Assembly: GCF_003555545.1 (NCBI RefSeq)
Contig: NZ_CP032157.1
Location: forward strand, 934,546 to 998,545
Source of the DNA: Paraflavitalea soli
GTDB lineage: Bacteria; Bacteroidota; Bacteroidia; Chitinophagales; Chitinophagaceae
Direction: 5' to 3'
DNA length: 64,000 bases
Shown here piece after piece: positions 45,293 through 63,021 of the stretch. Position 1 is the stretch's first letter. Each line of letters begins with the position of its first letter. A program made the position numbers and the translations under genes. A model generated the notes under the pieces. It did not search any database. It had not been told where the DNA came from and was given only the letters and a program-made list of their open reading frames with translations.

Positions 45293-46822
45293 ATGAGTTC
45301 ACACGATCTGTCCGTCATTATTTTAATCTCGCTGCTGATTGTACTATTGCCTGCCGTAGGGTTGTATAAAATGTTCCAAAAGGCAGGTATCCCGGCCTGG
45401 AAAGCATTTGTACCTTTTTTGAATACCTGGGAAATGCTCAGGCTGACCGACCTGAAAAAGCATTGGTTTTTCTGGCAGTTCATTCCTGTAGTAGGCTGGT
45501 TCATCAGTTTATGGATATTGGTAGAGTTTGTTAAGCTATTTGGCAAGTTCCGTTTCCTGCAGCATGCGGCTACGGTATTGTTTGGATTTGCCTACCTGCC
45601 CGCTATTGGTTATGATGCCAAAGAAAAGTACTATGGTCCGGAGATCGTGAAAAAGCATAAAAAGACCGCTGCGCGCGAATGGATCGATGCCGGTGTATTC
45701 GCCATCGTAGCGGCCACCCTGATCCGTACCTTTGTTTTTGAAGCCTATACCATTCCCACAGGATCTATGGAAAAGACCCTGCTGGTGAATGATTTTCTGT
45801 TTGTAAGCAAACTCAGCTATGGTCCCCGGATCCCCAATACACCGCTGGCCATACCTTTTGTTCACCATACCCTGCCCATTACGAATTCTAAATCATACTC
45901 CGAGCTCATCCACATTCCCTATACACGCTGGTTTGCCAGTCCGGTAAAAAGGAATGATGTAGTAGTGTTTAACTTTCCGGCGGGCGATACGGTGATCAAC
46001 CTTGAAGAGTTTCAGTCCCGGAACCCTTATTATGATGTAGCCTGGGAGATCGGAGACCACAATATGGATGTAGGCAGGCAGATCATCCTGTCTAATCCCG
46101 ACCGGTACCCCCTGATCATACGACCGGTTGATAAAAAAGAGAACTATATCAAACGATGTGTGGCCATTGCCGGTGATACCTTACAATTAATAGACGGTGT
46201 ATTGTTCATCAATGGGCAGAAAGCATTCCTGCCTCCCAAGATGCAGATGTTCTATTATGTGACCACTAAAGGGCAGCCATTAGACCCTGATGTGCTGCGG
46301 GAAGAATATGATTTCGACAAAGTAGATGACCTGGAACTTAGCCCCATGGGAGGCAACCGTTACCGGATGTTGCTCACCAATGATGCCAAAGACAAAATGA
46401 TCAAAAACGGTATTATCGACAGCATTGTGGTGGCCAAACAGGAAGATTCCAAGATATTCCCCCGTGATGGTAAGCACCATTGGCAGGTAGATGATTTTGG
46501 TCCTTTGTGGGTGCCTAAAAAAGGCGCTACGCTTACGCTGACACCAGATAACTATGCGATGTACGAACGCGCTATCCGTGTGTATGAGCACAATGACCTC
46601 GAAGTACGCAATGGTAAATTTTTCATCAACGACAAAGAGACCAACCAATATACCTTCAAAATGGATTATTTCTGGATGATGGGAGATAACCGTCATCAGT
46701 CACAGGATAGCCGTTTCTGGGGTTTTGTGCCCGAAGATCATGTGGTAGGAGAAGCATGGCTTATCTGGATGAGTTGGGATAAGGGCGTGCGCTGGAGCCG
46801 CATGTTTAGTAGCATTCACTAA
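45293..46822 (+). CDS. lepB: signal peptidase I with N-terminal DUF5684-like membrane part
   Basis: 509 residues, far longer than the E. coli enzyme (324). Residues 1-105 form a multi-helix membrane part with AGIPAWKAFVPFLNTWEMLRL, typical of DUF5684. A further helix (about 130-148) leads to the peptidase: nucleophile S158 in PTGSMEK, the Box C-E region, and general base K287 in YIKRCVAIAGD. The end has MGDNRHQSQDSRFWGFVPEDHVVG, the conserved Box E. An insert of roughly 130 residues lies between the two catalytic boxes. It cleaves signal peptides of exported proteins, of which this window has many. Confidence 0.94.
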   Translation: MSSHDLSVIILISLLIVLLPAVGLYKMFQKAGIPAWKAFVPFLNTWEMLRLTDLKKHWFFWQFIPVVGWFISLWILVEFVKLFGKFRFLQHAATVLFGFAYLPAIGYDAKEKYYGPEIVKKHKKTAAREWIDAGVFAIVAATLIRTFVFEAYTIPTGSMEKTLLVNDFLFVSKLSYGPRIPNTPLAIPFVHHTLPITNSKSYSELIHIPYTRWFASPVKRNDVVVFNFPAGDTVINLEEFQSRNPYYDVAWEIGDHNMDVGRQIILSNPDRYPLIIRPVDKKENYIKRCVAIAGDTLQLIDGVLFINGQKAFLPPKMQMFYYVTTKGQPLDPDVLREEYDFDKVDDLELSPMGGNRYRMLLTNDAKDKMIKNGIIDSIVVAKQEDSKIFPRDGKHHWQVDDFGPLWVPKKGATLTLTPDNYAMYERAIRVYEHNDLEVRNGKFFINDKETNQYTFKMDYFWMMGDNRHQSQDSRFWGFVPEDHVVGEAWLIWMSWDKGVRWSRMFSSIH

Positions 46823-47531: not shown

Positions 47532-50084
47532 ATGGGGAGACTCCTTTTATTGGTATGCTTTGTATTGATTGCAAACAGTGTATTTTGCCAGTCACACGGA
47601 TTAAGGTTTTCAAGTCATGAGGTTGTTCCCGAAAAGAGAACCTCACTTAACCTGACACCTAAAGACCCCTTGTGCCTCAAACAGGCTGCTGAGATCTCTT
47701 TCGACCTGGCTTTTACTCCCAACCTGGAAACCTATTTTGGGTATATCATGCGCCTGGTAACAGGCAACAATCAAAACATAGATATTGTCTACAACCAGAA
47801 ACTGCAGAAGTTCAACTTTGTGATCGGGGAAACTGTTTCCGGAGAATTTACCATCGATTCCATGCATTTATACGGCCAATGGAGCCAATTCAAGGTGACC
47901 CTGGATGCCAAAACACAGGAAGCAGGGTTTTACCTCAATAACCAGCTGGTGTCTAAAGGCAAGGCCAATATTTCCCATGCCACCTGTTACCGCATTTTTT
48001 TCGGCGCCAACGACTTTACAGGATTTCAGATCACCGATATCCCACCCATGAACATCCGGGATATCCGGATAGCAGAAGGTACTGCACAGGTAGCTTATTA
48101 TCCATTGTCTGAAAGCAGCGGCAATGAATGTGCCGATGAAATAAAGAATAAAGTAGCCCTGGTGACAAACCCGGTATGGATCAAACCCCGCCACCAGAAC
48201 TGGGTGCAGGCGGCGGCCGTTGAAACGAGGGGAGTAGCCAGTGTAGCTTTTGATAAACATACAGAAAGGCTCTACATTGTATCTCCCGACTCTTTGTACC
48301 AGTATTCCTTTAAGAACGGACAACTGACGGGCACAAAGCTCACTGTCGGTCGCGATACGTTGCCACCCGGCAATCAATCGGTGTGTAATGCTGCCGGTAA
48401 CGCCTTGTACAATTTTAATATAGATGAGAAGAAAGTAAGTACCTGGCAACCACAGGCCGGCAAGTGGGACCTGAACTTTACACCGGGACAACTTACCGTA
48501 TACTGGCAGGCCAATAAGTTCCTGTCGCCGGCAGATAGCTCCTTATATATAATAGGCGGATACGGCCAGTTGCAATACAAGAATGAAGTGCAGCGCTATC
48601 ATTTTCCTACCAAAGAATGGGAATCTATAGACCCCGGCGGTGATTTCTTTATGCCACGCTACCTGGCTGCCCTGGGCACCAATAACGCCGGCGATACCGC
48701 TTACATCATCGGTGGCTTTGGCAGTAAGACCGGCGATCAAACGATCAACCCCAAATATAGTTATGAACTAATAGCCTTTAGTGTAAAGAGCAATACTTTC
48801 AAAAGTCTCTTTCACCTGAAGGAACCTCCTAACCAATTTTGCTTTGCCAATAGCCTCGTCATTGATTCTGCTACGCGGGACTTTTATGCGCTCATTCATC
48901 CCATTGACCGCTTCAACTCGGTACTGCAATTGATGAAAGGCTCTCTGCAATCGCCGGATTATCAGCTGATGGGTGATACGATCCCTTATGCCTTTCATGA
49001 CATTGAATCATTTGCTGACCTCTATTATTGCCCAGTGAGTAAAAAGCTGGTTGCTGTAACCCTTTTTACCAATAAGCAGAATATTACCAGTGTAAAGGTC
49101 TATACCATAGATTTTCCACCCAATAAACTGGTGGCGGCAGCAACTCAGGTAGCCAAACCTTCCCGCGACTGGGTTTGGTTCCTGATAGCAGGGCTCCTGG
49201 TAGCGGTGGGTGTACTGGCGATGATGTGGCGGAAGAAGCGGGCGGATCAACTGGCGCACCAGGAGGCAAACTGGCAGGCAGCCATACCTGGCAAGGCAAC
49301 TGCGCCGGCAGTGACAGCTCATGCTGTGCCGGGAATAACAGAGCTGGCGGGCAGCAAGGAAGTGGCAGCCATCAACTTATTCGGGCAATTGGAGGTTTTT
49401 GACAAAGAAGGGAATGATATTACTAAAATGTTTACTCCTTTGCTCAAGGAGTTGTTCCTGCTGGTATTGATCCATACCTACAAAGATGGCCGGGGTATTG
49501 CTTCTGAAAAACTGTATGAAACTTTATGGAGCGATAAACCGATCAAAGATGCGCGGAATAATTTCTCCGTTAATGTGGTAAAGCTAAAAGGCATCCTGGA
49601 AAAAATAGGGGATTGCCATATCGGCAAAGAGACGGGTAAATGGAAACTGGATATCCTGAATAATTCCATTAAGGTAGACTTTCAGCAATACATGGAACTG
49701 GTGTCGCATAAAACGGCTATTAATAAAGCCTATGCGCATGAACTGGTACAGATTGTTGGAAGGGGGGCTTTCCTGAGCACCATGCATTATAGCTGGCTGG
49801 ATGATATTAAATCGGATGTTTCCGGTAAAACCATAGATATACTATTAAGTTATATATCAACGGCCGATCCCCTGGCCGACGCTGAATTTATTATCAAAGC
49901 CACCAATTGCATCTTCTTTTCCGACCAGCTCAACGAAGAGGCCCTGGTCTGGAAATGCAAATGCCTGGTACTGCTTGGGCGGCATGGCATGGCCAAAGAT
50001 GCCTACCTGAAGTTTGCCAAAGAATACCGGGAGAATTATGGGCAGGACTTCGAAAGGTCGTTCACCGAAATGACCGGGCAGTAG
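47532..50084 (+). CDS. membrane-spanning hybrid regulator: LamG/Kelch sensor, TM, winged-helix/BTAD output
   Basis: 850 residues from the ATG at 47532 (a TTG at 47526 would add two codons). Signal peptide (cleavage near SVFCQ), a LamG/concanavalin-like domain (about 45-180), Kelch-type propeller repeats (about 230-500, e.g. LYIIGGYGQ, AYIIGGFGS), one membrane helix (546-567), then a cytosolic part. Residues about 620-695 (EVFDKEGNDITKMFTP ... RNNFSVNVVKLKGILEKIG) fit a winged-helix domain of the SARP/OmpR type, and about 710-850 resembles the bacterial transcriptional activator helical repeats. It is probably a one-piece sensor that controls the mannan-type locus directly downstream. Confidence 0.72.
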   Translation: MGRLLLLVCFVLIANSVFCQSHGLRFSSHEVVPEKRTSLNLTPKDPLCLKQAAEISFDLAFTPNLETYFGYIMRLVTGNNQNIDIVYNQKLQKFNFVIGETVSGEFTIDSMHLYGQWSQFKVTLDAKTQEAGFYLNNQLVSKGKANISHATCYRIFFGANDFTGFQITDIPPMNIRDIRIAEGTAQVAYYPLSESSGNECADEIKNKVALVTNPVWIKPRHQNWVQAAAVETRGVASVAFDKHTERLYIVSPDSLYQYSFKNGQLTGTKLTVGRDTLPPGNQSVCNAAGNALYNFNIDEKKVSTWQPQAGKWDLNFTPGQLTVYWQANKFLSPADSSLYIIGGYGQLQYKNEVQRYHFPTKEWESIDPGGDFFMPRYLAALGTNNAGDTAYIIGGFGSKTGDQTINPKYSYELIAFSVKSNTFKSLFHLKEPPNQFCFANSLVIDSATRDFYALIHPIDRFNSVLQLMKGSLQSPDYQLMGDTIPYAFHDIESFADLYYCPVSKKLVAVTLFTNKQNITSVKVYTIDFPPNKLVAAATQVAKPSRDWVWFLIAGLLVAVGVLAMMWRKKRADQLAHQEANWQAAIPGKATAPAVTAHAVPGITELAGSKEVAAINLFGQLEVFDKEGNDITKMFTPLLKELFLLVLIHTYKDGRGIASEKLYETLWSDKPIKDARNNFSVNVVKLKGILEKIGDCHIGKETGKWKLDILNNSIKVDFQQYMELVSHKTAINKAYAHELVQIVGRGAFLSTMHYSWLDDIKSDVSGKTIDILLSYISTADPLADAEFIIKATNCIFFSDQLNEEALVWKCKCLVLLGRHGMAKDAYLKFAKEYRENYGQDFERSFTEMTGQ

Positions 50085-50225: not shown

Positions 50226-50370
50226 CGTGACGCAGCCCTACATGCTTTTCTTCATAAAAAATTAAAAAACAAGCTATTAATTTCCCAATTAATGGTTTTG
50301 TTAATGCCTTTATTAGTCTCCTCCTCCTTTCTTGCACTAAGAATTACTCAACGAAATGTTTGCCTGCTAT

Positions 50371-52593
50371 ATGAAAAAGCTCCTGCTGCTTTTACTGCTT
50401 TTGTGGAATGTTGCCGTCCTTTATGCCCGTCAACCCGGTAAAGCTTCCCTGCTGGTATCAGAAAGATCTAATCTTGCATATGTCGATCCCACTATTGGAA
50501 ATGTAGGTCAGCTCCTGGAGCCTACCCGGCCCACCATCCAGTTGCCCAATCAGATGATCAGGGTAGCCCCTCAGCGAAAAGATTACCTGGATAACCAGAT
50601 CACCAGTTTCCCGTTAAACATCGTTTCGCACCGGCTGGGGCAGGTGTTTGCCATCAAACCCTCCGTAAAGCCTATTGCCCGGGAGAGCTGGCAGGCCCGA
50701 ATGGCCTATGACCACGACCTGGAGATCAATGCGCCCTGGCATTATTCCACCTACCTCATCGATGATGAAGTGACGGTTGAGTTCACCCCTGGCAAAAAAG
50801 CCGGTATCTATCGTTTCCGCTTTCCCCAGTCGGCCCATAAATCCATTTTGCTGGATGTATACAATGGCGGCCAGTCCAATTATAGTTTTCCCTCCGCTAC
50901 AGAAATAACCGGCCTCGAAACCTGGCATGGAGATGTAAAAGTGTATATGTATGGTGTATGGAATACAGCGGGTAAGGGGGAGTTATGGGAAGGCAAAGGT
51001 CCTAAAGCTGCTGTGAGTTTTCCCTCAACGACTACTGAGGTTGAGTTGAGGTATGCGATCAGCTATGTAAGTGCTGAGCAGGCCAGGAAGAATTATGAGA
51101 CTGAATTGAAGGGCAGGAGTTTCGCCAGCCTGGTGGAAAACGGCAAAAAAGCCTGGGATAAAGTGTTGTCACAAATAAAAGTAGAGGGGGGCACGATAGC
51201 CCAGAAGCGTTCTTTTTATACCGCTTTGTACCGGTGTTATGAAAGAATGGTGGATGTATCGGAAGACAACAACTATTATAGCGGTTATAACAAGCAGGTA
51301 AATAAAGACCAGCGTCCTTTTTATGTGGACGACTGGGCATGGGATACTTACCTTGCGCATCACCCCCTGCGTATGATCCTGAACCCCGCGCAGGAGGAAG
51401 ATATGCTGCAGTCTTATGTACGCATGTACGAGCAAAGCGGCTGGATGCCCACCTTCCCCGTATTGTTTGGCGATCATGCCTGCATGAATGGATTTCATTC
51501 TTCCGTAGTGTTTTTGGATGCATACCGCAAGGGGTTGAAAAACTTTGATATCCAGAAAGCATATGAAGGCATGCGGAAAAATGCCACGGATGCTACCATT
51601 ATTCCCTGGCGCAATGGGCCTAAAACATCTCTCGACGATTTTTACCATACCAACGGTTATTTCCCCGCGCTTGCTCCCGGCGAAAAAGAAACGGTGGGCC
51701 TGGTAGATAATTTCGAAAAGCGGCAGGCAGTAGCTGTTACGCTGGGTACCAGTTACGACGACTGGGCATTGGCCCAACTGGCTAAAGACCTGAAGAAACC
51801 TGAAGATTATGCCCTGTTCACACCAAGGGGCCTTAATTATAAGAACCTATGGCACCCCGAGAAGAAATTCTTCCTGCCGAAAGATGACAAGGGCAACTGG
51901 ATCAACATTGATCTGAAGTTTGACGGCGGTCCCGGTGGACGCGATTATTACGATGAGAACAATGGCTGGACCTACCTGTGGCAGGTGCAACAGGATATAC
52001 CGGGCCTCATTGACCTGATGGGGGGCAAGAAAACTTTTGAAGACAGATTGGATCAATTGTATCGCGAAGGACTGGGCCGCAGTAAACATGAATTCTGGTC
52101 CAAATTTCCCGATGCTACCGGCCTGGTAGGCCAATATTCCATGGGTAATGAGCCGAGCTTTCATATTCCCTACCTCTACAATTTTACCGCTTCGCCCTGG
52201 AAAACGCAGCAGGTTACCCGCTTCCTGCTCGATGTGTGGTTTAAGGACAATGTGTTTGGCATTCCCGGTGATGAAGATGGTGGTGGTATGACGGCCTTTG
52301 TAGTTTTCTCTTCTATGGGCTTCTATCCGGTAACACCCGGGTTGCCTGTGTATACGATCGGCAGCCCCTTATTCAGCAAAATAACCATTGACCTGCAGAA
52401 TGGAAAACAGTTCAGGCTCACTGCCAACCGCTGTTCTGTAGTCAATAAATATATTCAAAGCGCTAAGATGAATGGAGTGGTGTTGAATACACCCTGGTTC
52501 ACACACGAGCAACTGATGAAGGGAGGACACCTGGAACTGGAAATGGGCCCCAAGCCCAACAAGACCTGGGGCACGGCCAATGCGGGTTTTTAA
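50371..52593 (+). CDS. GH92 family alpha-mannosidase
   Basis: About 740 residues with a signal peptide (Leu-rich, cleavage near LYARQ). Typical GH92 N-terminal beta-sandwich opens VDPTIGNVGQLLEPTRPTIQLPNQM. The (alpha/alpha)6 catalytic domain has GDHACMNGFHSSVVFLDAY, the general-acid motif GNEPSFHIPY and the base motif GIPGDEDGGGM, plus the C-terminal SMGFYPVTPG. GH92 enzymes are calcium-dependent inverting exo-alpha-mannosidases. The ATG at 50371 begins the signal directly, the ATG at 50356 adds five residues. It lies between the hybrid regulator and a pectate-lyase-fold protein in the presumed mannan locus. The exact linkage cannot be told from sequence. Confidence 0.93.
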   Translation: MKKLLLLLLLLWNVAVLYARQPGKASLLVSERSNLAYVDPTIGNVGQLLEPTRPTIQLPNQMIRVAPQRKDYLDNQITSFPLNIVSHRLGQVFAIKPSVKPIARESWQARMAYDHDLEINAPWHYSTYLIDDEVTVEFTPGKKAGIYRFRFPQSAHKSILLDVYNGGQSNYSFPSATEITGLETWHGDVKVYMYGVWNTAGKGELWEGKGPKAAVSFPSTTTEVELRYAISYVSAEQARKNYETELKGRSFASLVENGKKAWDKVLSQIKVEGGTIAQKRSFYTALYRCYERMVDVSEDNNYYSGYNKQVNKDQRPFYVDDWAWDTYLAHHPLRMILNPAQEEDMLQSYVRMYEQSGWMPTFPVLFGDHACMNGFHSSVVFLDAYRKGLKNFDIQKAYEGMRKNATDATIIPWRNGPKTSLDDFYHTNGYFPALAPGEKETVGLVDNFEKRQAVAVTLGTSYDDWALAQLAKDLKKPEDYALFTPRGLNYKNLWHPEKKFFLPKDDKGNWINIDLKFDGGPGGRDYYDENNGWTYLWQVQQDIPGLIDLMGGKKTFEDRLDQLYREGLGRSKHEFWSKFPDATGLVGQYSMGNEPSFHIPYLYNFTASPWKTQQVTRFLLDVWFKDNVFGIPGDEDGGGMTAFVVFSSMGFYPVTPGLPVYTIGSPLFSKITIDLQNGKQFRLTANRCSVVNKYIQSAKMNGVVLNTPWFTHEQLMKGGHLELEMGPKPNKTWGTANAGF

Positions 52594-52843: not shown

Positions 52844-54070
52844 ATGAAATACGCTGTATTGCTATTGCTGTTGATGTCTGCTATTGGTGCCGGTGCTTTT
52901 GCACAGGGCAAAAGTATCCGGGAATTCCAGGTACTTCCTAAAAATGATGCTGCTACCAATGGGGCCAATCTTCAAAAAGCCATTGACTGGGCTTCTGCCA
53001 GCGGCGCTGCCTTATATGTAGAGCCGTCCGAGGAACCTTACACCATTGCCAGTGGTATCATCTTAAAGAAAAACGTATCGCTTATTGGCGTACATGGCCC
53101 CACACCGCGGGGCACCCGGCATGCCACCAAAAAACAACCGGTGGGTAGTGTATTTAAAATAATAGATGACAAGAACCCATTCATTACAGTCGAGTCGGCC
53201 ACACAGATCAGGGGTATCCAGTTCTGGTATGCCAACCAGGAGTTGAAAGACTCTGCTAAGATCATTAAGTACCCGCCTACGATACAGGTGAGCAAAACCT
53301 CCAAAACAGAAGGGGTAACGCTTACCAACCTTACTTTCTACGGCGAGTATATGGCCATGGATTTTAATGCCAGCCGGAGAATGGCCTGCGAGCTGATCCT
53401 TATTGAACATTGCTATGGGTATCCGTTGAGTGGCGAGTTTATCCGGATCAACTATTGTTATGATATACCCCGTTTCCTCCATTGCCACGTGAATCCTTCC
53501 AATATGCGGCAGATCGGATTTGGCTTTTCCAAAGCGATCATTGATAAGGTGGTCAGCAGCAAGACCTATGCTTATGCCATCAACAATACGGACAATGCCC
53601 AGCTGATGGACCTGTTCACCTTTGCCACCTGGGGCGGTATTTACCTGGGCGCAGAAAGCTATGGGCAGCTGACGAATTTTAACCTGGATTGTGTAGCTGT
53701 GGGCCTCTATAAAGGTGGTTCCAATAGCAAGAACCGCAACTGGCAGATCGCGCAGGGCTCCATCATTGCCAATGCCGGCACAACGCTGGATGAGATCCAT
53801 CCCATTATTATTGAAGGAAAAGGACATACCGCCATCACCAACGTAGAGGCATTCTCCGGTGGTAATGGCGCATTAACGAACCTGGAAAAGTCATTTGATT
53901 TTATGCAGGTATTGGGTACGGAAAGACTCACCGTATCCCTGGTAGGCTGCCGCATGCGCAATTATGTGACCGACCTGCCCATCACCATTAAAAACCCCGC
54001 TGCTGTGGTACAAGCCGTAGCCTGTATTGATAAAGAAGAAAAACTGTACAACGCAACCTTGGGAAACTAA
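52844..54070 (+). CDS. pectate-lyase-fold (right-handed beta-helix) secreted protein
   Basis: 408 residues with a signal peptide (cleavage near GAFAQG). The start of the mature protein (IREFQVLPKNDAATNGANLQKAIDWASASG) is the entry strand of the pectate lyase superfamily 3 / GH28-related beta-helix, followed by VEPSEEPYTIASGIILKKNVSLIGVHG and many short parallel strands. No catalytic Asp pair of GH28 could be located with confidence, so this may be a binding or lyase-like member. It is in the presumed mannan locus between GH92 and the SusC gene, perhaps handling a pectic or capsular portion of the same polymer. Confidence 0.7.
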   Translation: MKYAVLLLLLMSAIGAGAFAQGKSIREFQVLPKNDAATNGANLQKAIDWASASGAALYVEPSEEPYTIASGIILKKNVSLIGVHGPTPRGTRHATKKQPVGSVFKIIDDKNPFITVESATQIRGIQFWYANQELKDSAKIIKYPPTIQVSKTSKTEGVTLTNLTFYGEYMAMDFNASRRMACELILIEHCYGYPLSGEFIRINYCYDIPRFLHCHVNPSNMRQIGFGFSKAIIDKVVSSKTYAYAINNTDNAQLMDLFTFATWGGIYLGAESYGQLTNFNLDCVAVGLYKGGSNSKNRNWQIAQGSIIANAGTTLDEIHPIIIEGKGHTAITNVEAFSGGNGALTNLEKSFDFMQVLGTERLTVSLVGCRMRNYVTDLPITIKNPAAVVQAVACIDKEEKLYNATLGN

Positions 54071-54235: not shown

Positions 54236-57200
54236 ATGAAAAGATTGTATTACATATTATTCCTGGCATGTGCTTTCCCCTTTTTAGCTGTGGCACAGCA
54301 AAAAGTGATCAGTGGGAAAGTGACGGATGCCAGCCGCACGGCTTTGCCGGGTGTTACTGTTTCTGTGAGAAGCAGTAATGGCAATGCGTCGACCGACGTG
54401 TATAAGTCGGCTGCAACCACAGACAGTCAAGGATCTTTTAGCATTACCGTTCCACAAGGAGCTACCGCATTGGTATTTACTTTTGTCGGTAAAAAAGAGG
54501 TTGTTGAAACCATTGGTACACGTACGGTTATGAATGTAACCATGACTGATGGTGACGACCAGCTATCAGATGTAGTGGTAATAGGTTATGGAACCCGGAA
54601 AAAGGAAACGCTTACGGGTTCTGTAAGCAATATCTCCAATAAGGATATCCAAACAACTACCAGCGTAAGCCTGGCGCAAAAGCTACAGGGTAAAGTGGCT
54701 GGTTTGCAGATACGGCAGCTGAGTGGTGAGCCCGGTACATTTGAGAACATGATCAATATCCGTGGTTTTGGAGCTCCTTTGTATGTTATCGATGGTATCG
54801 TACGGGACGGCTCTTCTGAGTTCCAGAGACTTAATGCCGATGATATTGAGAGTGTATCTTTTCTGAAAGATGCCTCTGCCGCTATTTATGGCTTTGGTTC
54901 TTCCAATGGTGTGGTGATCGTTACTACCAAGAAAGGCGCCCGGGGTAAGGCTTCCTTTAATTACACCGGTGTGGTAGGATTTTCACAGCCTACCGATGTG
55001 CCCCGCATGGCCAATGCCTCCGAATGGATGCAGATGCGCAATGAGGCCAACCTGAATATGTATACCAGTCCAACCCCTTTCATCACCAAGGAAGAGTTGC
55101 AAAAATGGATCGATGGTGCGCCCGGTTATGAAAGTACGGACTGGTATGATGCGGCCCTCAAAAAGACCTCCATCACACAACAGCATAACCTGAGTGCTTC
55201 CGGTGGCAACGAAAAAACACAATATTATATCGGTCTGGCCTATGTAGATGAAGGCAGCTACCTGCGCAGCAATGACATGAATTACAAGCGCTACAACTTC
55301 CGCTCCAATATCACAACGGAACTGGCCAAGAACCTGAAAGCAGAAGTGCTGATCGGTGGCCGTTACGATATCAGGACAACACCCGGTGAAAACTTCTTCA
55401 ATATCTTCAAGGGCACACGGGTAACCCTGCCTACGGAGAAGCCTTATGCCAATGGCAACCCACTGTATCCTGCGATGGTAACACCGTCTACGCAGAACCC
55501 CCTGGCCTTATCTGACAGGAGTATTACCGGGTACAGTGAAACGGTAAACAGGGGAGTACAATCTACCTTCTCATTGACCTATGATGTACCATTCGTGAAA
55601 GGACTTACGTTGAAAGGCACAGCGGCTTATGACCTCAACAGCTACCAGGGTAAGGATGTATCCAAACCTTATACCTTGTACACGTATGTAAATGGTGATT
55701 ATGTACCCTCTCCCCAGCGGGTAGGTACGGGTGGTATTTCCAATGGCTATGGCAACAGCAACCGATTTGTGGTGATTGGCCAGGCCAACTATGCCACTAC
55801 CATTGCCAACCACCATAACGTGGCCCTCCTGGGCGCCTTTGAACAAAGGCAGGACTGGAGCCGTAACGCCGACCTGAGAAGGATCTATGATTTCTATACG
55901 ATCGACCAGATCAACGCAGCCAGTGGTAATGGTATGACCAATGGCGGCGGAGAAGGACAATCCGCTTCTCAGGCGGTACTGGGTCGTTTCAACTACGATT
56001 ACGATAAAAAGTATTTGCTCGAACTGGCATTCCGTTACATGGGTACTTATGCTTATCCTCCCGATACTCGCTGGGGTTTCTTCCCCATCATTTCCGGTGG
56101 CTGGAGGATTTCTGAAGAGAACTTCATGAAAAATATACCGGTTATCTCCAACCTTAAATTACGTGCTTCTTATGGTCGTGTGGGTGAGCAGGCTGGCGGT
56201 CCCTTCCAGTGGATCCAGGGCTTTTCGCTGAGCGGTGGCGGTCAATATGAGTTTACCAACGGAAGCCTGACCACTGGTGCGCAGGCGCCCGGACTGGTGA
56301 ACCCTTCACTGACCTGGGTTACTGCCAAGACAGCTGATATTGGTATTGAAGTTGGTTTGTGGAATAATAAGCTGACCCTGGAAGCAGCTGTTTACCGCAG
56401 AGACAGGCTTGGTATTCCTGCCCGCAAAAATGTGTCCCTGCCCAATACCTTTGGCGCTTCCCTGCCTGAGGAGAACCTTAACAGTGACCGTACGCAAGGT
56501 ATAGAGTTTACCATTGGTTACAACGACAGGATTGGAAAGGACTTCCGTTTTAATGTGTCCGGCAACTTCAATTTTGCCCGTTCACAAAACCTCTATGTTG
56601 AAAGAGGGCCCTTCCAAAGCAGCTGGGACAAATGGAAAAACGGAACAGCATACCGCTACGATGATATCATCTGGTCCTATACTTACCTGGGCCAATTCCA
56701 GAACATGGATGAAATTGCCAACTATCCCATTCAGGGCGGTGATAATGCCAATACGCGTGAGTTGCCCGGCGACTTCAAATATTCCGATATCAACAACGAT
56801 GGTATGATCGACGACAAGGATATGTTGCCCATGTACCTCGGCGCCAACGGTACCAATGATAACCAAAACCCAAGGGGTAAAAATCCCAAGATCAACTACG
56901 GTCTTACGCTCAATGCTTCTTACAAAGGATTTGACATCAATTTACTATTGCAGGGTTCTGCTATGTACACCGTTCGTTTCAGCGAAGTATATGCTGAAGT
57001 ACTGGCCTTCCGTGGTAATACGCCTGCCTATTTCTTCGACAGGTGGCATAGAGCGGATCCCTATAATCCAAAGAGTGATTGGATACCCGGTAAATGGCCC
57101 GCTACCCGGTTCAATGGTGATGTAGGCGCTATGTACAGAGAGAGTTCTGTATGGCGTAAAGATGCCTCTTATGTGCGTTTGAAAAGCGTGGAACTGGGTT

Positions 57201-57397
57201 ATACGTTCGAGAACAAATTGTTCTCCGGTAGCGGTATCAAAAAACTACGTGTATTTGTAAGCGGCTTTAACCTGCTCACCATTGCCGATCCTTTTGTAAA
57301 AGCTTTCGATCCGGAAAGACTGGAAGGTTTGTTCAATGCAGGGTTCAACTACCCGCTTTCCAAAATATATAACGTAGGTCTCAATCTTAACTTCTAA
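54236..57397 (+). CDS. SusC/RagA TonB-linked outer-membrane receptor (no STN domain)
   Basis: 1053 residues. Signal peptide (cleavage near AVAQQK), CarboxypepD_reg-like domain (KVISGKVTDASRTALPGVTV), plug beginning LSDVVVIGYGTRKKETLTGSV, with LYVIDGIV and FLKDASAAIYG, and a barrel ending KIYNVGLNLNF. Unlike the SusC at 17.7-21.3 kb it has no STN part, so it should not signal through a FecR protein, which suits control by the hybrid regulator upstream. It imports oligosaccharides with the SusD protein encoded 12 bases later. Confidence 0.94.
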   Translation: MKRLYYILFLACAFPFLAVAQQKVISGKVTDASRTALPGVTVSVRSSNGNASTDVYKSAATTDSQGSFSITVPQGATALVFTFVGKKEVVETIGTRTVMNVTMTDGDDQLSDVVVIGYGTRKKETLTGSVSNISNKDIQTTTSVSLAQKLQGKVAGLQIRQLSGEPGTFENMINIRGFGAPLYVIDGIVRDGSSEFQRLNADDIESVSFLKDASAAIYGFGSSNGVVIVTTKKGARGKASFNYTGVVGFSQPTDVPRMANASEWMQMRNEANLNMYTSPTPFITKEELQKWIDGAPGYESTDWYDAALKKTSITQQHNLSASGGNEKTQYYIGLAYVDEGSYLRSNDMNYKRYNFRSNITTELAKNLKAEVLIGGRYDIRTTPGENFFNIFKGTRVTLPTEKPYANGNPLYPAMVTPSTQNPLALSDRSITGYSETVNRGVQSTFSLTYDVPFVKGLTLKGTAAYDLNSYQGKDVSKPYTLYTYVNGDYVPSPQRVGTGGISNGYGNSNRFVVIGQANYATTIANHHNVALLGAFEQRQDWSRNADLRRIYDFYTIDQINAASGNGMTNGGGEGQSASQAVLGRFNYDYDKKYLLELAFRYMGTYAYPPDTRWGFFPIISGGWRISEENFMKNIPVISNLKLRASYGRVGEQAGGPFQWIQGFSLSGGGQYEFTNGSLTTGAQAPGLVNPSLTWVTAKTADIGIEVGLWNNKLTLEAAVYRRDRLGIPARKNVSLPNTFGASLPEENLNSDRTQGIEFTIGYNDRIGKDFRFNVSGNFNFARSQNLYVERGPFQSSWDKWKNGTAYRYDDIIWSYTYLGQFQNMDEIANYPIQGGDNANTRELPGDFKYSDINNDGMIDDKDMLPMYLGANGTNDNQNPRGKNPKINYGLTLNASYKGFDINLLLQGSAMYTVRFSEVYAEVLAFRGNTPAYFFDRWHRADPYNPKSDWIPGKWPATRFNGDVGAMYRESSVWRKDASYVRLKSVELGYTFENKLFSGSGIKKLRVFVSGFNLLTIADPFVKAFDPERLEGLFNAGFNYPLSKIYNVGLNLNF

Positions 57398-57409: not shown

Positions 57410-59305
57410 ATGAAATTGAATCATATAAAATATATCGTATTGGCAGCAGGTCTCTCGTTTGCTGGTTGTAAGCGGGTACTGGATCTGCAACCTACTGATA
57501 AAGTGACGGCAGATGCCATCTTTGGCGATCCTGCCGGTGTAAAGATCTATATGGCCAATCTTTACTACCAGTTGCCCATTGAAGATTTTGCTTTCTTCCG
57601 TGCCGGTTTTAATCAAAATGGCGGTGATCCCAACAATGGTGGTTTCAGCCCTGCCATGGAAACCGATGAGGCCGTGCATACAGAGTTTGGTGATTTTGTG
57701 GGCGATGGTGATTTCCATTGGTGGGATCAGGGCTACAAACTCATCCGCGATGTGAACCTCCTCATCGATTATATTCCTACCCTCAAGATCCGGGATGATG
57801 AAAGGGCGGCGTTGAAAGGTGAGAGCGCCTTTATTAAGGCCTTTGCTTATTTCGCACTGGTAAAAAGGTATGGCGGTGTGCCCCTGATGAAAAAATCACA
57901 GGTGTACACGGGTGATGCTGAAGCGCTGAAAGTGCCCCGCAGCACAGAAAAAGAAACCTGGGATTATGTAATGGAGTTGTGCGATGAGGCCATTGCCAAC
58001 CTCGCTGCTACCAAAGGAAGCCGTCGTGCCTCCAAATATGCCGCTTACGCATTGAAGAGCCGTGCGGCGCTGCATGCTGCCTCCCTCGCTAAGTTTGGCA
58101 ACCGCATCACCCTTACAGGCCCTGCAGTGGACCAGAAACTGGTAGGTCTGGATGCTTCCGCAGCCAATGGCTATTACAAATTGGCGATCGATGCCTCTGC
58201 AGCTATCATTTCCAGTAACCAGCTTAGTTTGTATAAACCCAATCCTACTGATCCTGCACAGGCAGCGGAGAATTATCGCGAGTTGTTCCAGGATCCCAAT
58301 GTAGCCAATGACAACGAAGCCATCCTGATCAAAGGTTATTCATTGCCCGGTAATAACCTGGGGCATAATTATGATATCTGGTACCAGCCTGCACAGGTGG
58401 CCAATGGCTGGCCTCACCCCGGTCGTATGAATCCTACACTCGACCTGGCCGATGTGTATGAAAGTTATACGGCACCCGGTGCATCTGCTCCCATTGTAAC
58501 CCGTACGGATGGTAATGTAACGGACTATAATGGTTTTAACAGTGGCACCAGCTATTTACAATTCGATACACCGAATGATATCTTCAAGAACAAAGATGCA
58601 CGCCTGTGGGCAACAGCTATCCTGCCCAGCACCAACTGGAAGAACATTTCCATCATTATCCAGGCAGGTTTTGTAAAACCCGATGGTAATGCGGTGATCC
58701 GTACCAAAGACCAGATCACGGTAAGCGGCACTACTTATTATAGCTACGGTGCTCCTGATGTGACGATGTACTCTGGTTTTGACACCTATGGCGGCAATAA
58801 TACCCGCACTGGTTTCTCCTTCAAAAAATTCATGAACCAGACCAAGCCTATCGAGGCAGGCTGGAACCGCAGCACCAGCGATTGGGTAGAGTTTCGGTAT
58901 GCCGAAGTATTGCTCAACTATGCCGAAGCTGTTATTGAAAGTGGCCAGGGTGATGCTGTGCTGGCCGCCAAAGTGCTGAATGATATCCGCCACCGCGCAG
59001 GTCATACCACCAATATTCCTTTGACTGCCGACAATGTGCAAAGAGAAAGAAGGGTAGAGCTGGCTTTTGAGAACAAAAGGCTGTGGGACCTGATACGCAG
59101 AAGAGAATTCCACACCGAGTTCAACAACCGGTTTTTGCACTCTTTACTGCCGCTGCAGGACCTGCGTGCATTACCTGCCAAAAAGTACATTTTCGTACGG
59201 GTGAATGTGCCTAACTCCGGTTCCAAAACATTCCAGCCCAAGAGCTACTACCGGTATGTGCCGGGTATTGGTTCCAATGGACTGGTACAGAATCCGCAGT
59301 ATTAG
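57410..59305 (+). CDS. SusD/RagB family glycan-binding lipoprotein
   Basis: 631 residues with lipobox SFAGCKRV. N-terminal SusD block (LDLQPTDKVTADAIFGDP), TPR-like region with GESAFIKAFAYFALVKRYGGVPLM, and C-terminal conserved block (RYAEVLLNYAEAVIESG ... RRVELAFENKRLWDLIRR). It is the surface lid of the SusC transporter directly upstream. The DUF3823 lipoprotein gene follows after about 105 bases, the usual order for this kind of locus. Confidence 0.94.
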   Translation: MKLNHIKYIVLAAGLSFAGCKRVLDLQPTDKVTADAIFGDPAGVKIYMANLYYQLPIEDFAFFRAGFNQNGGDPNNGGFSPAMETDEAVHTEFGDFVGDGDFHWWDQGYKLIRDVNLLIDYIPTLKIRDDERAALKGESAFIKAFAYFALVKRYGGVPLMKKSQVYTGDAEALKVPRSTEKETWDYVMELCDEAIANLAATKGSRRASKYAAYALKSRAALHAASLAKFGNRITLTGPAVDQKLVGLDASAANGYYKLAIDASAAIISSNQLSLYKPNPTDPAQAAENYRELFQDPNVANDNEAILIKGYSLPGNNLGHNYDIWYQPAQVANGWPHPGRMNPTLDLADVYESYTAPGASAPIVTRTDGNVTDYNGFNSGTSYLQFDTPNDIFKNKDARLWATAILPSTNWKNISIIIQAGFVKPDGNAVIRTKDQITVSGTTYYSYGAPDVTMYSGFDTYGGNNTRTGFSFKKFMNQTKPIEAGWNRSTSDWVEFRYAEVLLNYAEAVIESGQGDAVLAAKVLNDIRHRAGHTTNIPLTADNVQRERRVELAFENKRLWDLIRRREFHTEFNNRFLHSLLPLQDLRALPAKKYIFVRVNVPNSGSKTFQPKSYYRYVPGIGSNGLVQNPQY

Positions 59306-59411: not shown

Positions 59412-60095
59412 ATGAATAAGTTTCGATTAATACTTTTTTTATCCGTCATAGCCCTGGCATCCTGTAAAAAGGATAACTATGATGGCCCCACTGCCGGGCT
59501 TTCCGGTAATTTCTTTGATGCTACTACCCACGAACTGGTGCAGATGGACATTATCCGTGGTACACAGATCGAGTTCATTGAGCATGGATATGCCAATCCA
59601 GCCACGCAAACCATGATCATCAAGAATGATGGCACTTACGCCAACACCCTGATGTTTGCCAATACGTATACCATCAAGATACGGGAGCCGAATTTCATTC
59701 CTGTTCCTGAGCAGGAAGTGGTAATAAACGGACAAACCAAACTTGATTTCCAGGTTACCCCCTATATCCGGGTAAAGGATGTAAGCATTGTAAAGAATGG
59801 CACCAAGATCGTAGCTACTTTCAAGCTGCAGCAAAATGTGATCAACAATGTATCGAAGATCGGTCTGTATGCCCATTCCGATTCAAGGGTAGGTGAGCCG
59901 ATGCGTGTAGTAGCTAAAGAGCAATCCATTGGCGCCGTTACCAATCCGGCCACCGTGTACACATTGGAAATAGATATTCCTGCTTATCCCAACGAGCTGA
60001 AAGCAGGTAACAATTATTATTTCAGGGTGGGCGCCTTCATTGACATTGGCGGCACCAAGCCTAATTATGCACCAGCTGTAAAGCTGACAATATAG
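59412..60095 (+). CDS. DUF3823 lipoprotein of the SusCD locus
   Basis: 227 residues, lipobox ALASCKKDN. The start of the mature part (DNYDGPTAGLSGNFFDATTHEL) and the following beta-rich units (IEFIEHGYANPATQTMIIKNDGTYAN ... KFTYTIKIREPNF-like strands) match DUF3823, a two-domain beta-sandwich encoded after SusD in many polysaccharide utilisation loci. It is thought to be a surface glycan-binding protein comparable with SusE/F, which is inference. The stop lies 117 bases before the GH71/99-like gene start. Confidence 0.88.
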   Translation: MNKFRLILFLSVIALASCKKDNYDGPTAGLSGNFFDATTHELVQMDIIRGTQIEFIEHGYANPATQTMIIKNDGTYANTLMFANTYTIKIREPNFIPVPEQEVVINGQTKLDFQVTPYIRVKDVSIVKNGTKIVATFKLQQNVINNVSKIGLYAHSDSRVGEPMRVVAKEQSIGAVTNPATVYTLEIDIPAYPNELKAGNNYYFRVGAFIDIGGTKPNYAPAVKLTI

Positions 60096-60212
60096 TTCCC
60101 GTATCCTGATAACCATCGGGTCGGGTGACCATTGCTGAAACGAGGGGTGCAGTCCGAGGCAGTAGGGCTGTGCCCTGGTTTTCAGCATCCGGAACACTTA
60201 AAACATTGTACT

Positions 60213-61547
60213 ATGAGAAAAATAACAAGGCTCCTGGCATTGTCAGCTTGTCTGGCGATCATCAGCTGCTCCAAAAAAGGTGGGGGAGGGAACAATCCTC
60301 CCGATCCTCCGGATCCGCCGCCGGTAACGGAAGTTGTATATGATGAAACAGGGTGTTTGTATACCTCCTATAATAAACTGGTGATGGCTGGCTACCAGGG
60401 ATGGTTTGCCGCACAGGGTGATGCCTCCGAACGTGGCTGGTACCATTACCAAAACGGTAATTGCGGTGGCTTTATGCCTGGCTGTTCGGCTGTGGATTTC
60501 TGGCCCGATATGACCGAGTATACCAAATCGTATAAGTCGCCATTTAAGTTCCCCAATGGGAATGATGCGTACCTGTACAGTCCTTATGATGAGGAAACGG
60601 TAGACCTGCACTTTAAATGGATGAAGGATTACGGCATTGACGGGGTGTTTATGCAGCGTTTTGTAGGAGAAATAAAACCAACGAATGCAAAGGGCAAAAG
60701 GCATTTCAACAAAGTATTGGAAAATGCCCTGAAGGCTGCAAAGAAATATGGTCGTGCCATTTGTGTGATGTACGACCTCAGCGGTTGTAGTCCGGCAGAT
60801 GTTGCTTACCTGGAGCAGGACTGGAATGAATTGCAGTCATTGTTCAATCTGTTTAGCAATACAGCCAATCCAACTTACCTGCGTCACAATAAGAAACCCC
60901 TGGTGGTCATATGGGGCGTAGGATTTAATGACAACAGGCAATACACAACGGCTGATGTAGACAAGGTGGTAGATAAGATCAAGGGCCCCACCAAAAAAGT
61001 ATCCGTGATGCTGGGCGTGCCTTATTTCTGGCGCACCCTGAAGAACGACACAGAAGCTTCACCTGCCCTGCACACCCTCATTAAGAAATGTGATATCGTG
61101 ATGCCCTGGGCTGTGGGAAGGTATGGCAATGACAACTACAACAATGTGGCTGGTGGCGAACTGGCAGGGGATATACAATGGTGTACGACCAACAGTATTA
61201 CCTATGTACCGCTGGTTTTTCCCGGATTTAGCTGGGGCAACCTGCGCATGGATGCCGCCCAGTACAACTCTATTCCCCGCTTTAAAGGAGATTTCCTATG
61301 GAAACAGGTGGCAGGGGCCAAAATCTCCGGCGCACAAAGCCTGTATGTGGCCATGTTTGATGAGATTGATGAAGGCACAGCCATCTTTAAATGTGCCCGT
61401 GAAGCCGACCTGCCTTTGCACGGCAGCAGAAAGTTTATTGGCATAGACAACGACCTCGCTTCAGATTATTATTTATGGCTTACAGGCCAGGCTGGCAAGT
61501 GGTTCCATGGTGACAATGGATTTTCTGCCACCAAACCTGTACGCTGA
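60213..61547 (+). CDS. GH71/GH99-like lipoprotein hydrolase, copy 1
   Basis: 444 residues from MRKITRLLAL (60213). The frame is open to 60132, but this ATG starts the lipoprotein signal (lipobox AIISCSKK). A Gly/Pro-rich linker (NPPDPPDPPPV) precedes the catalytic barrel: MAGYQGWFAAQGD, DLHFKWMKDYGIDGVFMQRF, YDLSGCSP, PLVVIWGVGF, and MFDEIDEGTAIF, where E384 and E387 match the E-x-x-E pair of GH99 endo-alpha-mannosidases. Expected to act on internal alpha-mannosidic linkages, supporting a mannan-type substrate. A paralogue follows 200 bases later. Confidence 0.85.
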   Translation: MRKITRLLALSACLAIISCSKKGGGGNNPPDPPDPPPVTEVVYDETGCLYTSYNKLVMAGYQGWFAAQGDASERGWYHYQNGNCGGFMPGCSAVDFWPDMTEYTKSYKSPFKFPNGNDAYLYSPYDEETVDLHFKWMKDYGIDGVFMQRFVGEIKPTNAKGKRHFNKVLENALKAAKKYGRAICVMYDLSGCSPADVAYLEQDWNELQSLFNLFSNTANPTYLRHNKKPLVVIWGVGFNDNRQYTTADVDKVVDKIKGPTKKVSVMLGVPYFWRTLKNDTEASPALHTLIKKCDIVMPWAVGRYGNDNYNNVAGGELAGDIQWCTTNSITYVPLVFPGFSWGNLRMDAAQYNSIPRFKGDFLWKQVAGAKISGAQSLYVAMFDEIDEGTAIFKCAREADLPLHGSRKFIGIDNDLASDYYLWLTGQAGKWFHGDNGFSATKPVR

Positions 61548-61746: not shown

Positions 61747-63021
61747 ATGAAAACTACGCCTGGTATTTTCCTGATCGGCTTAATGTTGACGACCTTTTCT
61801 CTTCACGCCCAGTTCAAACACAGCAAAGAAACAAAATACCCTTCCTATAGAGGGCTGATGATGGCAGGCTACCAGGGATGGTTCCGTGCCCAGGGCGATG
61901 GTACCAATGCCCGGCGTTTTGCCTATGGCAATGAAGAACGCAGTGGTATTGACATGTGGCCCGATGTTACCGAATATGAAAAGACGTATGAAACGCCCTG
62001 GAAACTGCCCGACGGCAAGCCGGCCCGGTTTTTCAGCAGTAACGATAAAAGTACGGTAGACCTTCATTTCAAGTGGATGCAGCAATATGGCGTGGATGGG
62101 GTGTTCATGCAACGTTTCTTTGGCAATGCCAAGGGGCGTGATAGCGTATCGGGCACCATCCTCAGGAATGCCTTTGAAGCCGCTTCCAAATACGGCAGGG
62201 CCATTGCTGTAATGTATGATCTTTCCGGTTTGCGGGGTTCTAATGAAGACTGTTCAGCCCTCATTGAGGATTGGAAATACCTGGTGGATAAACTGAAGGT
62301 CACTAACCAGGCTGGTCAGAAGACTTACCTGCACCATAATGGCAAACCGCTGGTGGCTATTTGGGGCGTTGGTTTCCCTGACAGGCCTTATAATATCCGG
62401 AATATTGGGTTGGAGAAATTGATCGACTTCCTCAAGAATGACCCGGTATACGGTGGTTGTGCCGTAATGCTGGGTGTGCCTGCCTTTTGGCGTGAACTGA
62501 ATGCAGACTGTCTGCCTGATCCTTACCTGCATACGCTGATCAAACAATGTGATATTGTATTGCCCTGGACGGTACAGCGCTACAGTCCGCTTTTGCACAA
62601 TGATATGGACCGTTTTCGTGATAATACCATAGCTGATATAGAATGGTGCAGGAAGAATCATATAGATTATGTACCCTGTGTATATCCCGGCTTCAGCTGG
62701 CACAACCTGAGCCGCTATGAGTTTCCGGATGATGTAAAACCTGTGGGCTCCATTCCCCGCCAGGGAGGCCGTTTTTACTGGCAGCAGATCAGTACGGCTA
62801 TCAATGCTGGTGCTTCCATGTTGTATGTGGCTATGTTTGATGAGGTGAACGAGGCAACTGCCATCTTTAAAGTAACTGATACGCCCCCCATGAGTACCGT
62901 CACTTCTTTTATCAATAATGACGGCAAGCCTTCGGATCACTACTTGTGGCTGACGGGCGAGGCCGGGAAGATGTTGCGCAACGAAAAACCGCTTACGCTG
63001 AAGATGCCGGAGCGGAAGTAG
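61747..63021 (+). CDS. GH71/GH99-like secreted hydrolase, copy 2
   Basis: 424 residues with an SPI signal peptide (cleavage near FSLHAQ), not a lipobox, so it is freely periplasmic or exported. Paralogue of copy 1: MAGYQGWFRAQGD, DLHFKWMQQYGVDGVFMQRFF, YDLSGLRGS, PLVAIWGVGF, and MFDEVNEATAIF with the E-x-x-E pair at E366/E369. The Gly after the second Glu is Ala here. Different cell location of the two copies (lipoprotein versus soluble) suggests consecutive steps, surface cut then periplasmic cut. Ends before a terminator. Confidence 0.85.
   Translation: MKTTPGIFLIGLMLTTFSLHAQFKHSKETKYPSYRGLMMAGYQGWFRAQGDGTNARRFAYGNEERSGIDMWPDVTEYEKTYETPWKLPDGKPARFFSSNDKSTVDLHFKWMQQYGVDGVFMQRFFGNAKGRDSVSGTILRNAFEAASKYGRAIAVMYDLSGLRGSNEDCSALIEDWKYLVDKLKVTNQAGQKTYLHHNGKPLVAIWGVGFPDRPYNIRNIGLEKLIDFLKNDPVYGGCAVMLGVPAFWRELNADCLPDPYLHTLIKQCDIVLPWTVQRYSPLLHNDMDRFRDNTIADIEWCRKNHIDYVPCVYPGFSWHNLSRYEFPDDVKPVGSIPRQGGRFYWQQISTAINAGASMLYVAMFDEVNEATAIFKVTDTPPMSTVTSFINNDGKPSDHYLWLTGEAGKMLRNEKPLTLKMPERK

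What the first reader, a model, noticed from the sequence alone, without database searches (positions are those of the whole stretch)
47532..50084. One-piece LamG/Kelch membrane sensor with SARP-like cytosolic output beside a glycan locus
Seen: signal peptide, LamG-like and Kelch-like extracytoplasmic parts, one membrane helix, and a cytosolic winged-helix plus activator-like helical repeats in one chain, directly upstream of GH92 and a SusCD pair. Known: glycan loci are usually controlled by hybrid two-component systems, SusR, or FecR/ECF pairs. Inference: this protein is a direct sensor-regulator for the locus, with the Kelch propeller reading a glycan and passing the signal through one helix without phosphorelay.
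Basis: partly seen in the sequence, partly recalled or inferred. Interest (0 to 1): 0.7.

Follow-up and report, generated by a model that had tools for sequence, protein, structure and literature searches.

The report
Membrane-anchored SARP-type glycan-locus regulator
This bacterial gene makes a sensor that spans the inner membrane, with a lectin-like part and a Kelch propeller outside and a DNA-binding unit of the kind that switches on Streptomyces antibiotic genes inside, and it is paired with a matching row of DNA repeats at the start of the neighbouring sugar-degradation genes.

Summary
ORF 47532-50084 (850 aa) has a signal peptide, a lectin-like beta-sandwich, a Kelch propeller, one membrane helix, a disordered linker and a cytosolic winged helix plus helical repeats. 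The cytosolic unit models at pLDDT 94; its only PDB fold matches at E<=0.001 are six chains of EmbR and AfsR, both SARP-type, although sequence profiles do not recognise it. The family is large (302 encoding stretches). GH92 or SusC lies within 9.8 kb in 49 of 50 loci with full flanks; GH92 in 32 of 50 against about 3% expected. New here: the gap between regulator and locus holds three or more direct repeats RTTAR at 11-12 bp steps in 34 of 49 regions (shuffles: 0.03 per 49), a set distance before a -7-like box, as in SARP operators. The window has four (50276-50316). The exact 12-bp quadruplet sits beside the regulator, at one place per genome, in 11 of 14 genomes that carry it, and in 0 of 20 without it. 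Best reading: a membrane-spanning SARP-type activator of the adjacent, probably alpha-mannan, locus. Ligand, activation and signalling across the membrane are inferred.

The parts
47532..50084 (+). Regulator gene, 850 aa, lectin-like / Kelch / one membrane helix / SARP-type unit
47532..47591 (+). Signal peptide, residues 1-20
   Evidence: sequence; hydrophobic N-terminal segment in 70 of 77 members
47598..48167 (+). Lectin/LamG-like beta-sandwich, residues 23-212
   Evidence: predicted fold; no Pfam hit in this protein
48204..49115 (+). Kelch propeller, residues 225-528, 23 strands
49167..49253 (+). Membrane helix, residues 546-574, followed by RKKR
49254..49364 (+). Disordered cytosolic linker, residues 575-611
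   Evidence: pLDDT under 50 for 574-607; lowest conservation of the protein
49365..49655 (+). Winged helix (OmpR/SARP type), residues 612-708
   Evidence: best conserved part of the protein
49656..50075 (+). Helical repeats, BTAD-like, residues 709-848
50276..50316 (+). Predicted operator: four direct repeats RTTAR starting at 50276, 50288, 50300 and 50312
50328..50334 (+). -7-like promoter box TTTCTTG, 11 nt after the last repeat
   Evidence: conserved at this distance in 34 anchored regions
50371..52593 (+). GH92 alpha-mannosidase family; the ORF opens at 50356, the likely start with signal peptide is 50371
52844..54070 (+). Pectate-lyase-like protein (weak Pfam hit, below cut-off)
54236..57397 (+). 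SusC
57410..59305 (+). SusD
59412..60095 (+). DUF3823 protein
60132..61547 (+). GH99-like protein, similar to the next; no Pfam hit of its own
61747..63021 (+). GH99-like protein (Pfam GH99 E 4e-6, 26.6 bits, below the cut-off of 33)

Best explanation
A one-component, inner-membrane-spanning activator of the adjacent glycan locus. The periplasmic lectin-like and Kelch parts sense a glycan fragment, most likely a mannose-containing oligosaccharide brought in by SusC/SusD. Binding gathers or reorients the protein, and the tethered SARP-type units sit side by side on a row of 3-4 direct repeats (RTTAR, 11-12 bp steps) that occupies the place of the -33 box, and recruit RNA polymerase to the GH92-SusC-SusD operon. 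Shown by computation: domains, SARP fold, linkage, operator and its specificity. Inferred: activation rather than repression, the ligand, signalling through one helix, and that no partner protein is needed.
For: Cytosolic unit pLDDT 94.2; all six PDB hits at E<=0.001 are EmbR/AfsR, next hit E 0.27; hhalign with three SARP-like proteins probability 94, E 1.2e-7. GH92 or SusC within 9.8 kb in 49 of 50 loci; GH92 32 of 50 against p about 0.029; same gene order at 27% identity in Persicobacter. Operator: 34 of 49 regions with three or more repeats, 0.03 per 49 in shuffles; fixed distance to a -7-like box; 1 of 109 chains inside a coding sequence; exact quadruplet at one place beside the regulator in 11 of 14 carriers and in 0 of 20 non-carriers; repeat number and step follow the protein clade. 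No kinase or receiver domain.
Against: Sequence profiles do not recognise the output unit: BTAD 6 and Trans_reg_C 8 of 54 members at best E about 0.02, no better than plainly unrelated families in the same list, and Pfam BTAD has no match in the window genome. The fold matches have rmsd 5.3-6.1 A and TM 0.56-0.63. 8 of 49 regions have no or one repeat; Persicobacter has no clear array; the second copy in the window genome has two perfect and one degenerate repeat. The carriers were mostly picked from the clade where 12-bp arrays had been seen. Neither binding nor expression was tested; operator and regulator are linked only by place and co-occurrence.
Confidence: 0.82

Rival explanations
1. 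Same protein and operator, but the signal is passed by cleavage: a protease cuts the linker or membrane helix and frees the SARP-type unit, which then acts as a soluble activator.
For: Long disordered linker of variable length, 23-89 residues, median 43.
Against: No conserved cleavage motif was seen; linker and helix are the least conserved parts. No protease gene is kept beside it outside the genus (immediate neighbourhoods only). Tethered action is known for SusR and other membrane regulators (PMC3878776 and PMC10269533, passages).
Confidence: 0.15
2. A repressor: without glycan the tethered units block the promoter, and glycan releases them.
For: The repeats overlap the presumed -33 region, where a bound protein could also block.
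Against: The spacing of the nearest repeats to the -7-like box resembles that of the AfsR activator's two 11-bp repeats (PMC10936776, passages); SARP proteins are activators in the papers seen.
Confidence: 0.08
3. The repeats are a general promoter feature of GH92/SusC genes, or the site of another regulator, and are not read by this protein.
For: The regions were chosen next to those genes, and binding was not tested.
Against: The window genome has 7 GH92 and 105 SusD genes but one exact quadruplet, at this gene, and one triplet place elsewhere. 0 of 20 genomes without the gene have the quadruplet; repeat step tracks the protein clade; a Parabacteroides protein with the same output unit but other neighbours also has the repeats beside it.
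Confidence: 0.06
4. The Kelch propeller binds a partner protein (SusC/D, another envelope protein) and not a glycan; the lectin-like part alone, or the partner, senses the sugar.
For: The propeller's best fold matches are protein-binding Kelch domains; related proteins sense with LamG domains and no propeller.
Against: The propeller is kept and conserved in the 77 aligned members, which says nothing on what it binds; no test made here separates the two.
Confidence: 0.3

Closest known systems
SARP activators (AfsR, PimR; EmbR by fold)
   Same: Winged helix plus helical activator domain; operators of 2-3 direct repeats with 11-bp period near the -35 region (PMC10936776 and PMC5930380, passages).
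   Different: Those papers describe Streptomyces proteins; this one is tethered to the membrane, has its sensor outside the cell membrane, sits in Bacteroidota, uses RTTAR with 11- or 12-bp steps and up to four or five copies, and controls (inferred) a glycan locus.
SusR
   Same: Inner-membrane one-piece regulator with periplasmic sensor and cytosolic DNA-binding part beside a Sus locus (PMC3878776, passages). It works like SusR in layout.
   Different: SusR's DNA-binding part is said there to resemble no other known one, and its predicted sites are two repeats 67 or 77 bp apart; here SARP fold and 11-12 bp steps. No direct sequence comparison with SusR was made.
Hybrid two-component systems (HTCS)
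   Same: Periplasmic sensor (propellers, recalled), single chain, glycan loci; two HTCS serve alpha-mannan in B. thetaiotaomicron (PMC3878776, passages).
   Different: No kinase, receiver or AraC domain here.
Transmembrane transcription regulators (ToxR/CadC type)
   Same: One chain with sensor, membrane helix and DNA-binding domain (PMC10269533, outline, passages and section 6).
   Different: In ToxR/CadC the winged helix is N-terminal and has no BTAD (recalled); here it is C-terminal with a BTAD-like part. The words BTAD and propeller do not occur in that paper's main text; its supplements were not seen.

Membership tests
SARP activators | OmpR-type winged helix followed by BTAD helical domain | tested here: met
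   By fold: pLDDT 94.2; six PDB hits at E<=0.001, all EmbR/AfsR, 251-257 columns
SARP activators | Sequence match to Pfam Trans_reg_C and BTAD at cut-off | tested here: not met
   No hit in the protein; 8 and 6 of 54 members at best E about 0.02, at noise level; one relative BTAD E 0.0031, below cut-off
SARP activators | Operator of direct repeats with about 11-bp period before the -10 box | tested here: met
   Prediction only: 34 of 49 regions, fixed distance to a -7-like box; binding not tested
SARP activators | Activates transcription through sigma region 4 and RNA polymerase | not testable with these tools
   No experiment
SusR | SusR-type DNA-binding domain and far-spaced repeats | not tested
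   No SusR sequence was compared; the operator found has 11-12 bp steps, not 67/77 bp
HTCS | Histidine kinase, receiver and AraC domains in one chain | tested here: not met
   Only Kelch families at E<=10 in Pfam
Transmembrane transcription regulators (broad class) | One chain with a DNA-binding domain and at least one membrane helix | tested here: met
   (prediction)
ECF/anti-sigma pairs | Sigma factor and anti-sigma gene pair | tested here: not met
   Neither fold nor Pfam hit; the annotated genes 42926-63021 show no sigma factor

The most novel reading that the evidence does not exclude
A fourth class of regulator for Bacteroidota glycan loci, next to SusR, HTCS and ECF/anti-sigma: membrane-tethered SARP-type activators with interchangeable lectin-like sensors (LamG, LamG-LamG, LamG-Kelch). 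Ligand binding outside lines up three or four tethered protomers on a row of RTTAR repeats inside. The class reaches from soil Chitinophagales to gut Parabacteroides, and its operator code lets regulons be read from sequence.
Probability: 0.72. Interest if true: 0.8.

Novelty: new variant of a known kind. Interest (0 to 1): 0.73.

Why it matters
Glycan loci are a main foraging tool of Bacteroidota, and the review-like passage read here names three regulator types for them (PMC3878776). This looks like a further, widespread type; two of its members in Persicobacter are annotated 'hypothetical protein'. It brings a DNA-binding design known from Streptomyces antibiotic control to the membrane, and it comes with a predicted operator that makes the sensor-to-gene link testable at once. 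It would also let GH92-type loci and their inducers be assigned by sequence.

Tried and rejected
Pfam, NCBIfam and PDB sequence searches did not recognise the C-terminal unit; the one PDB profile hit, MccA at E 1.3, is taken as chance. A search for Pfam BTAD in 198 genomes of the phylum (66 with a match, none in the window genome) gave many TPR-like partial hits and, among the 30 loci looked at, proteins mostly without a membrane helix; the best ones served only for one profile comparison. A first four-row alignment of these held one row in a wrong frame and was replaced by three rows. An EM consensus on the divergent regions alone was less clear than the repeat analysis. The upstream genes of the window's genus (signal peptidase I, cytidine deaminase) were considered as partners and rejected, since in the neighbourhoods listed they are not kept outside the genus. 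Sigma-70 and terminator scans gave counts near shuffles (promoters 30 against 26.0, sd 5.9; terminators 25 against 17.0, sd 4.3) and were not used. The quadruplet hits in G002 are a (GTTA)n microsatellite at a contig end and were not counted.
Full report
What is there. The frame 47532-50084 (+) encodes 850 residues. Pfam finds Kelch repeats, four families over cut-off, and nothing else up to E 10; NCBIfam finds nothing up to E 0.01. A full-length AlphaFold model built on 77 family members (mean pLDDT 88.4, pTM 0.52) shows a beta-sandwich at 23-212, a propeller of 23 strands at 225-528, one long helix at 546-574, a linker under pLDDT 50 at 574-607, and a compact unit at 613-848. Foldseek's best PDB matches for the whole model are Kelch propellers (LZTR1, KLHDC3, KLHDC10). 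The lectin/LamG label for 23-212 is the weakest: no Pfam hit in this protein, only the model and other proteins that carry a true Laminin_G_3 domain with the same output unit.

The cytosolic unit. Modelled alone on 54 members it reaches pLDDT 94.2. In the PDB six chains match at E<=0.001: EmbR (2fez, 2ff4 twice) and the SARP unit of AfsR on its promoter (8hvr, 8k60 twice), over 251-257 columns at 14-16% identity, TM 0.56-0.63, rmsd 5.3-6.1 A; the next hit is at E 0.27. By sequence it is remote. In Pfam, BTAD is touched by 6 and Trans_reg_C by 8 of 54 members at best E 0.021 and 0.026; they head the list by count, but unrelated families reach similar counts (OST_P2 5) or better E-values (Phage_Mu_Gp36 0.00097), so this is noise level. 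A protein with two LamG domains and the same kind of output unit reaches BTAD at E 0.0031, below cut-off. hhalign with three small SARP-like proteins gives probability 94 and E 1.2e-7 for that one comparison, over residues 51-233 of the unit. The winged helix is the best conserved part of the protein (mean identity to the commonest residue 0.73; stretch 671-692, the presumed recognition helix, 0.78), while cytosolic linker (0.21) and membrane helix (0.32) are the least.

How common. The window genome (8.44 Mb, one contig) has two copies. Of 59 genomes in the relatives search 8 have a match, namely the window genome, 4 of its genus and 3 of its family. In the family 20 of 195 have one, of which G194 is a weak hit to part of the propeller. 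In the GTDB collection 302 of 343 pattern stretches encode a relative and the best 80 were kept; the named genera include Paraflavitalea, Segetibacter, Chitinophaga, Pinibacter, Foetidibacter, Pedobacter, Mucilaginibacter, Larkinella, Spirosoma and Dyadobacter. 76 full-length proteins from these went into alignment A2; 5 of the 80 loci (L031, L046, L092, L103, L104) were left out as split or truncated and L062 gave two. In 395 genomes of the class the output unit was found in 6, the window genome included and one of them a 50-residue piece. Relatives of the output unit occur with other sensors: a 520-residue protein without propeller whose N-terminal half resembles the lectin-like part by eye (L170, no Pfam LamG hit), a protein with two LamG domains (L172, 708 aa) and, at 32% identity over residues 614-848, a LamG protein of Parabacteroides distasonis. 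Four Persicobacter records hold the full length at 24-27% identity; in two of them a gene is listed there, 'hypothetical protein'.

What it sits beside. In the window: GH92, a pectate-lyase-like protein, SusC, SusD, DUF3823 and two GH99-like proteins. GH92 with GH99 points to alpha-mannan (recalled from Bacteroides mannan loci). Of the 80 loci 50 have at least 9.8 kb on both sides: GH92 lies within that distance in 32, SusC in 37, one or the other in 49 (the exception is Spirosoma, L052). 28 genomes that carry the gene hold 261 GH92 in 193 Mb, so a randomly placed gene would have one that near with probability about 0.029; the loci are related, so the binomial figure is not a true significance. 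SusCD is a weaker sign, since the window genome has 105 SusD genes. The window genome has 7 GH92, and both regulator copies have one within 7 kb. Layout changes but adjacency stays: regulator then GH92 in one direction in Paraflavitalea and Segetibacter, back to back with the locus in Chitinophaga. Persicobacter plasmid pPP5 has regulator, GH92, TonB-dependent receptor, SusD, DUF3823, one other gene, GH71/99-like. Other near neighbours, among 94 downstream and 85 upstream proteins scanned: GH99 10 and 2, GH3 9 and 2, GH43 7 and 2, GH95 4 and 15, DUF5703 11 upstream; so the glycan differs between clades. Among the 25 families shown for each set, regulators are few (LacI 3 of 94, receiver domain 2 of 85), but the lists are cut at 25 families and the longest proteins had been left out, so hybrid systems could be missed.

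The operator. I took the gap between the regulator and an adjacent SusC or GH92 gene: 16 divergent and 36 co-directional regions, window included, 14 and 35 after removing near copies. Loci whose neighbour is another gene were not used. An EM search found a motif far above shuffled controls (log-likelihood 347 against 86-87 for both sets together at 24 bp). It resolves into direct repeats [C/T]TAA[C/T] at 11 or 12 bp, which read RTTAR toward the locus in both layouts. Read that way, 34 of 49 regions have three or more in a row, 15 of them four or more, 7 have two and 8 none or one; shuffles give 0.03 regions with three per 49. The opposite strand gives 11 of 49, since ATTAAT is its own complement. 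Anchored on the last repeat, 34 regions share a block at +12 to +18 (T or A in 32 and 33 of 34 at +12 and +13, T in 31 and 32 of 34 at +16 and +17, G in 23 of 34 at +18), which fits the Bacteroidota -7 box TAnnTTTG (recalled). The two nearest repeats would then lie about where AfsR's two 11-bp repeats lie, -40 to -19 (PMC10936776, passages); no start site is mapped here. PimR's main operator is three heptamers with 4-bp spacers (PMC5930380, passages). In the window the repeats start at 50276, 50288, 50300 and 50312, the -7-like block is 50328-50334, and the likely GH92 start is 50371.

Specificity. In the 80 loci (1.51 Mb) there are 109 chains of three or more, both strands counted, so one place can count twice; 1 lies inside a called gene (60 bases from either end). 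Of 109, 49 lie up to 500 bases before GH92 or SusC, 34 before other genes, 6 before the regulator, and 19 before none. Of 27 chains of four or more, 21 lie before GH92 or SusC. The 64-kb window has this one array. In the window genome the exact 12-bp triplet has four matches, three at this operator and one at 6574148 near a histidine-kinase-like gene, against one for the reversed control pattern. The exact quadruplet was sought in 34 genomes, 14 with the regulator, picked mostly from the clade where 12-bp arrays had been seen, and 20 without. It is present at a single place, less than 1 kb from the regulator, in 11 of 14; G002 gave only a microsatellite, G013 and G082 nothing, and the loci of these three have three repeats or mixed steps. 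It is in 0 of 20 without the regulator; the reversed control pattern gave one match in 34 genomes. Repeat number and step follow the protein: at 50% identity or more to the window protein, 13 of 16 regions have four or more repeats, and 41 of 42 steps (in regions with three or more) are 12 bp; below 50%, 18 of 31 have three or more and 30 of 37 steps are 11 bp (2 of 49 regions had no full-length protein and are not in it). The Parabacteroides protein has ATTAG, GTTAA, a degenerate GTTTA and GTTAA at 11-bp steps before the next gene, an oxidoreductase. Against: Persicobacter pPP5 has no clear array, and the window genome's second copy has two perfect repeats and one degenerate at 11 bp.

How it most likely works. 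A periplasmic glycan fragment binds the lectin-like or Kelch part; the protein clusters or turns in the inner membrane; the SARP-type units, on their flexible tethers, line up on the repeats and bring in RNA polymerase. No kinase or receiver domain was found. Shown by computation: anatomy, fold, linkage, operator. Inferred: ligand, activation, signalling through one helix. Cleavage and release of the cytosolic unit is the main rival for the signalling step.

What is known. PMC3878776 (passages) names SusR, HTCS and ECF/anti-sigma as the Bacteroidetes types for glycan loci, and two HTCS in alpha-mannan-activated loci of B. thetaiotaomicron. SusR is a membrane regulator too, so this works like SusR in layout; SusR's DNA part is said there to resemble no other, and its predicted sites are 67 or 77 bp apart. 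PMC10269533 (outline, passages and section 6) shows that membrane-bound one-component regulators are enriched in Bacteroidota; the words propeller and BTAD are not in its main text, and its supplements were not seen. PMC11216935 (passages) lists ECF-sigma, anti-sigma and HTCS as the regulators in one set of glycan loci. Ten searches of an open-access library were made (one search was for SARP operators and for glycan-locus regulators). No listed title or abstract start describes this fusion or its operator; subscription papers and preprints are not covered. I therefore call it a new variant of a known kind: a membrane-spanning SARP-type regulator for glycan loci.

Noticed in passing
L172:76-2199 (+); L170:1495-3054 (-); L197:12063-14741 (+): The same kind of SARP-type output unit behind other sensors: two LamG domains (L172), a short sensor without propeller (L170), and a long N-terminal part with LamG in Parabacteroides distasonis (L197), the last with RTTAR repeats at 11-bp steps before the next gene.
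   Followed up: partly
window genome G000:C1:7741106-7743682 (L014, L015): A second copy of the regulator (40% identical) with SusC, SusD, two GH92 and a GH99-like gene downstream, and a row of several copies of a roughly 50-base repeat between regulator and SusC.
   Followed up: partly
window 44209-45117 (-): MerR-type regulator with a B12-binding domain, like the light sensor CarH (recalled).
   Followed up: no
window 45293-46822 (+): Signal peptidase I with a DUF5684 domain at its N-terminus, kept with a cytidine deaminase before the regulator in the genus.
   Followed up: no
G000:C1:6574148-6574176 (L178): The only other 12-bp RTTAR triplet in the window genome, at a gene that looks like a histidine kinase followed by a response regulator.
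   Followed up: partly
L041:18863-18902, L043:6719-6758 and other entries: 34 chains of repeats lie before genes I did not label, among them 753-residue genes in several Mucilaginibacter loci; they may mark further operons of the same regulon.
   Followed up: no
G002 contig C164, bases 3-59: A (GTTA)n microsatellite at a contig end in a relative.
   Followed up: no
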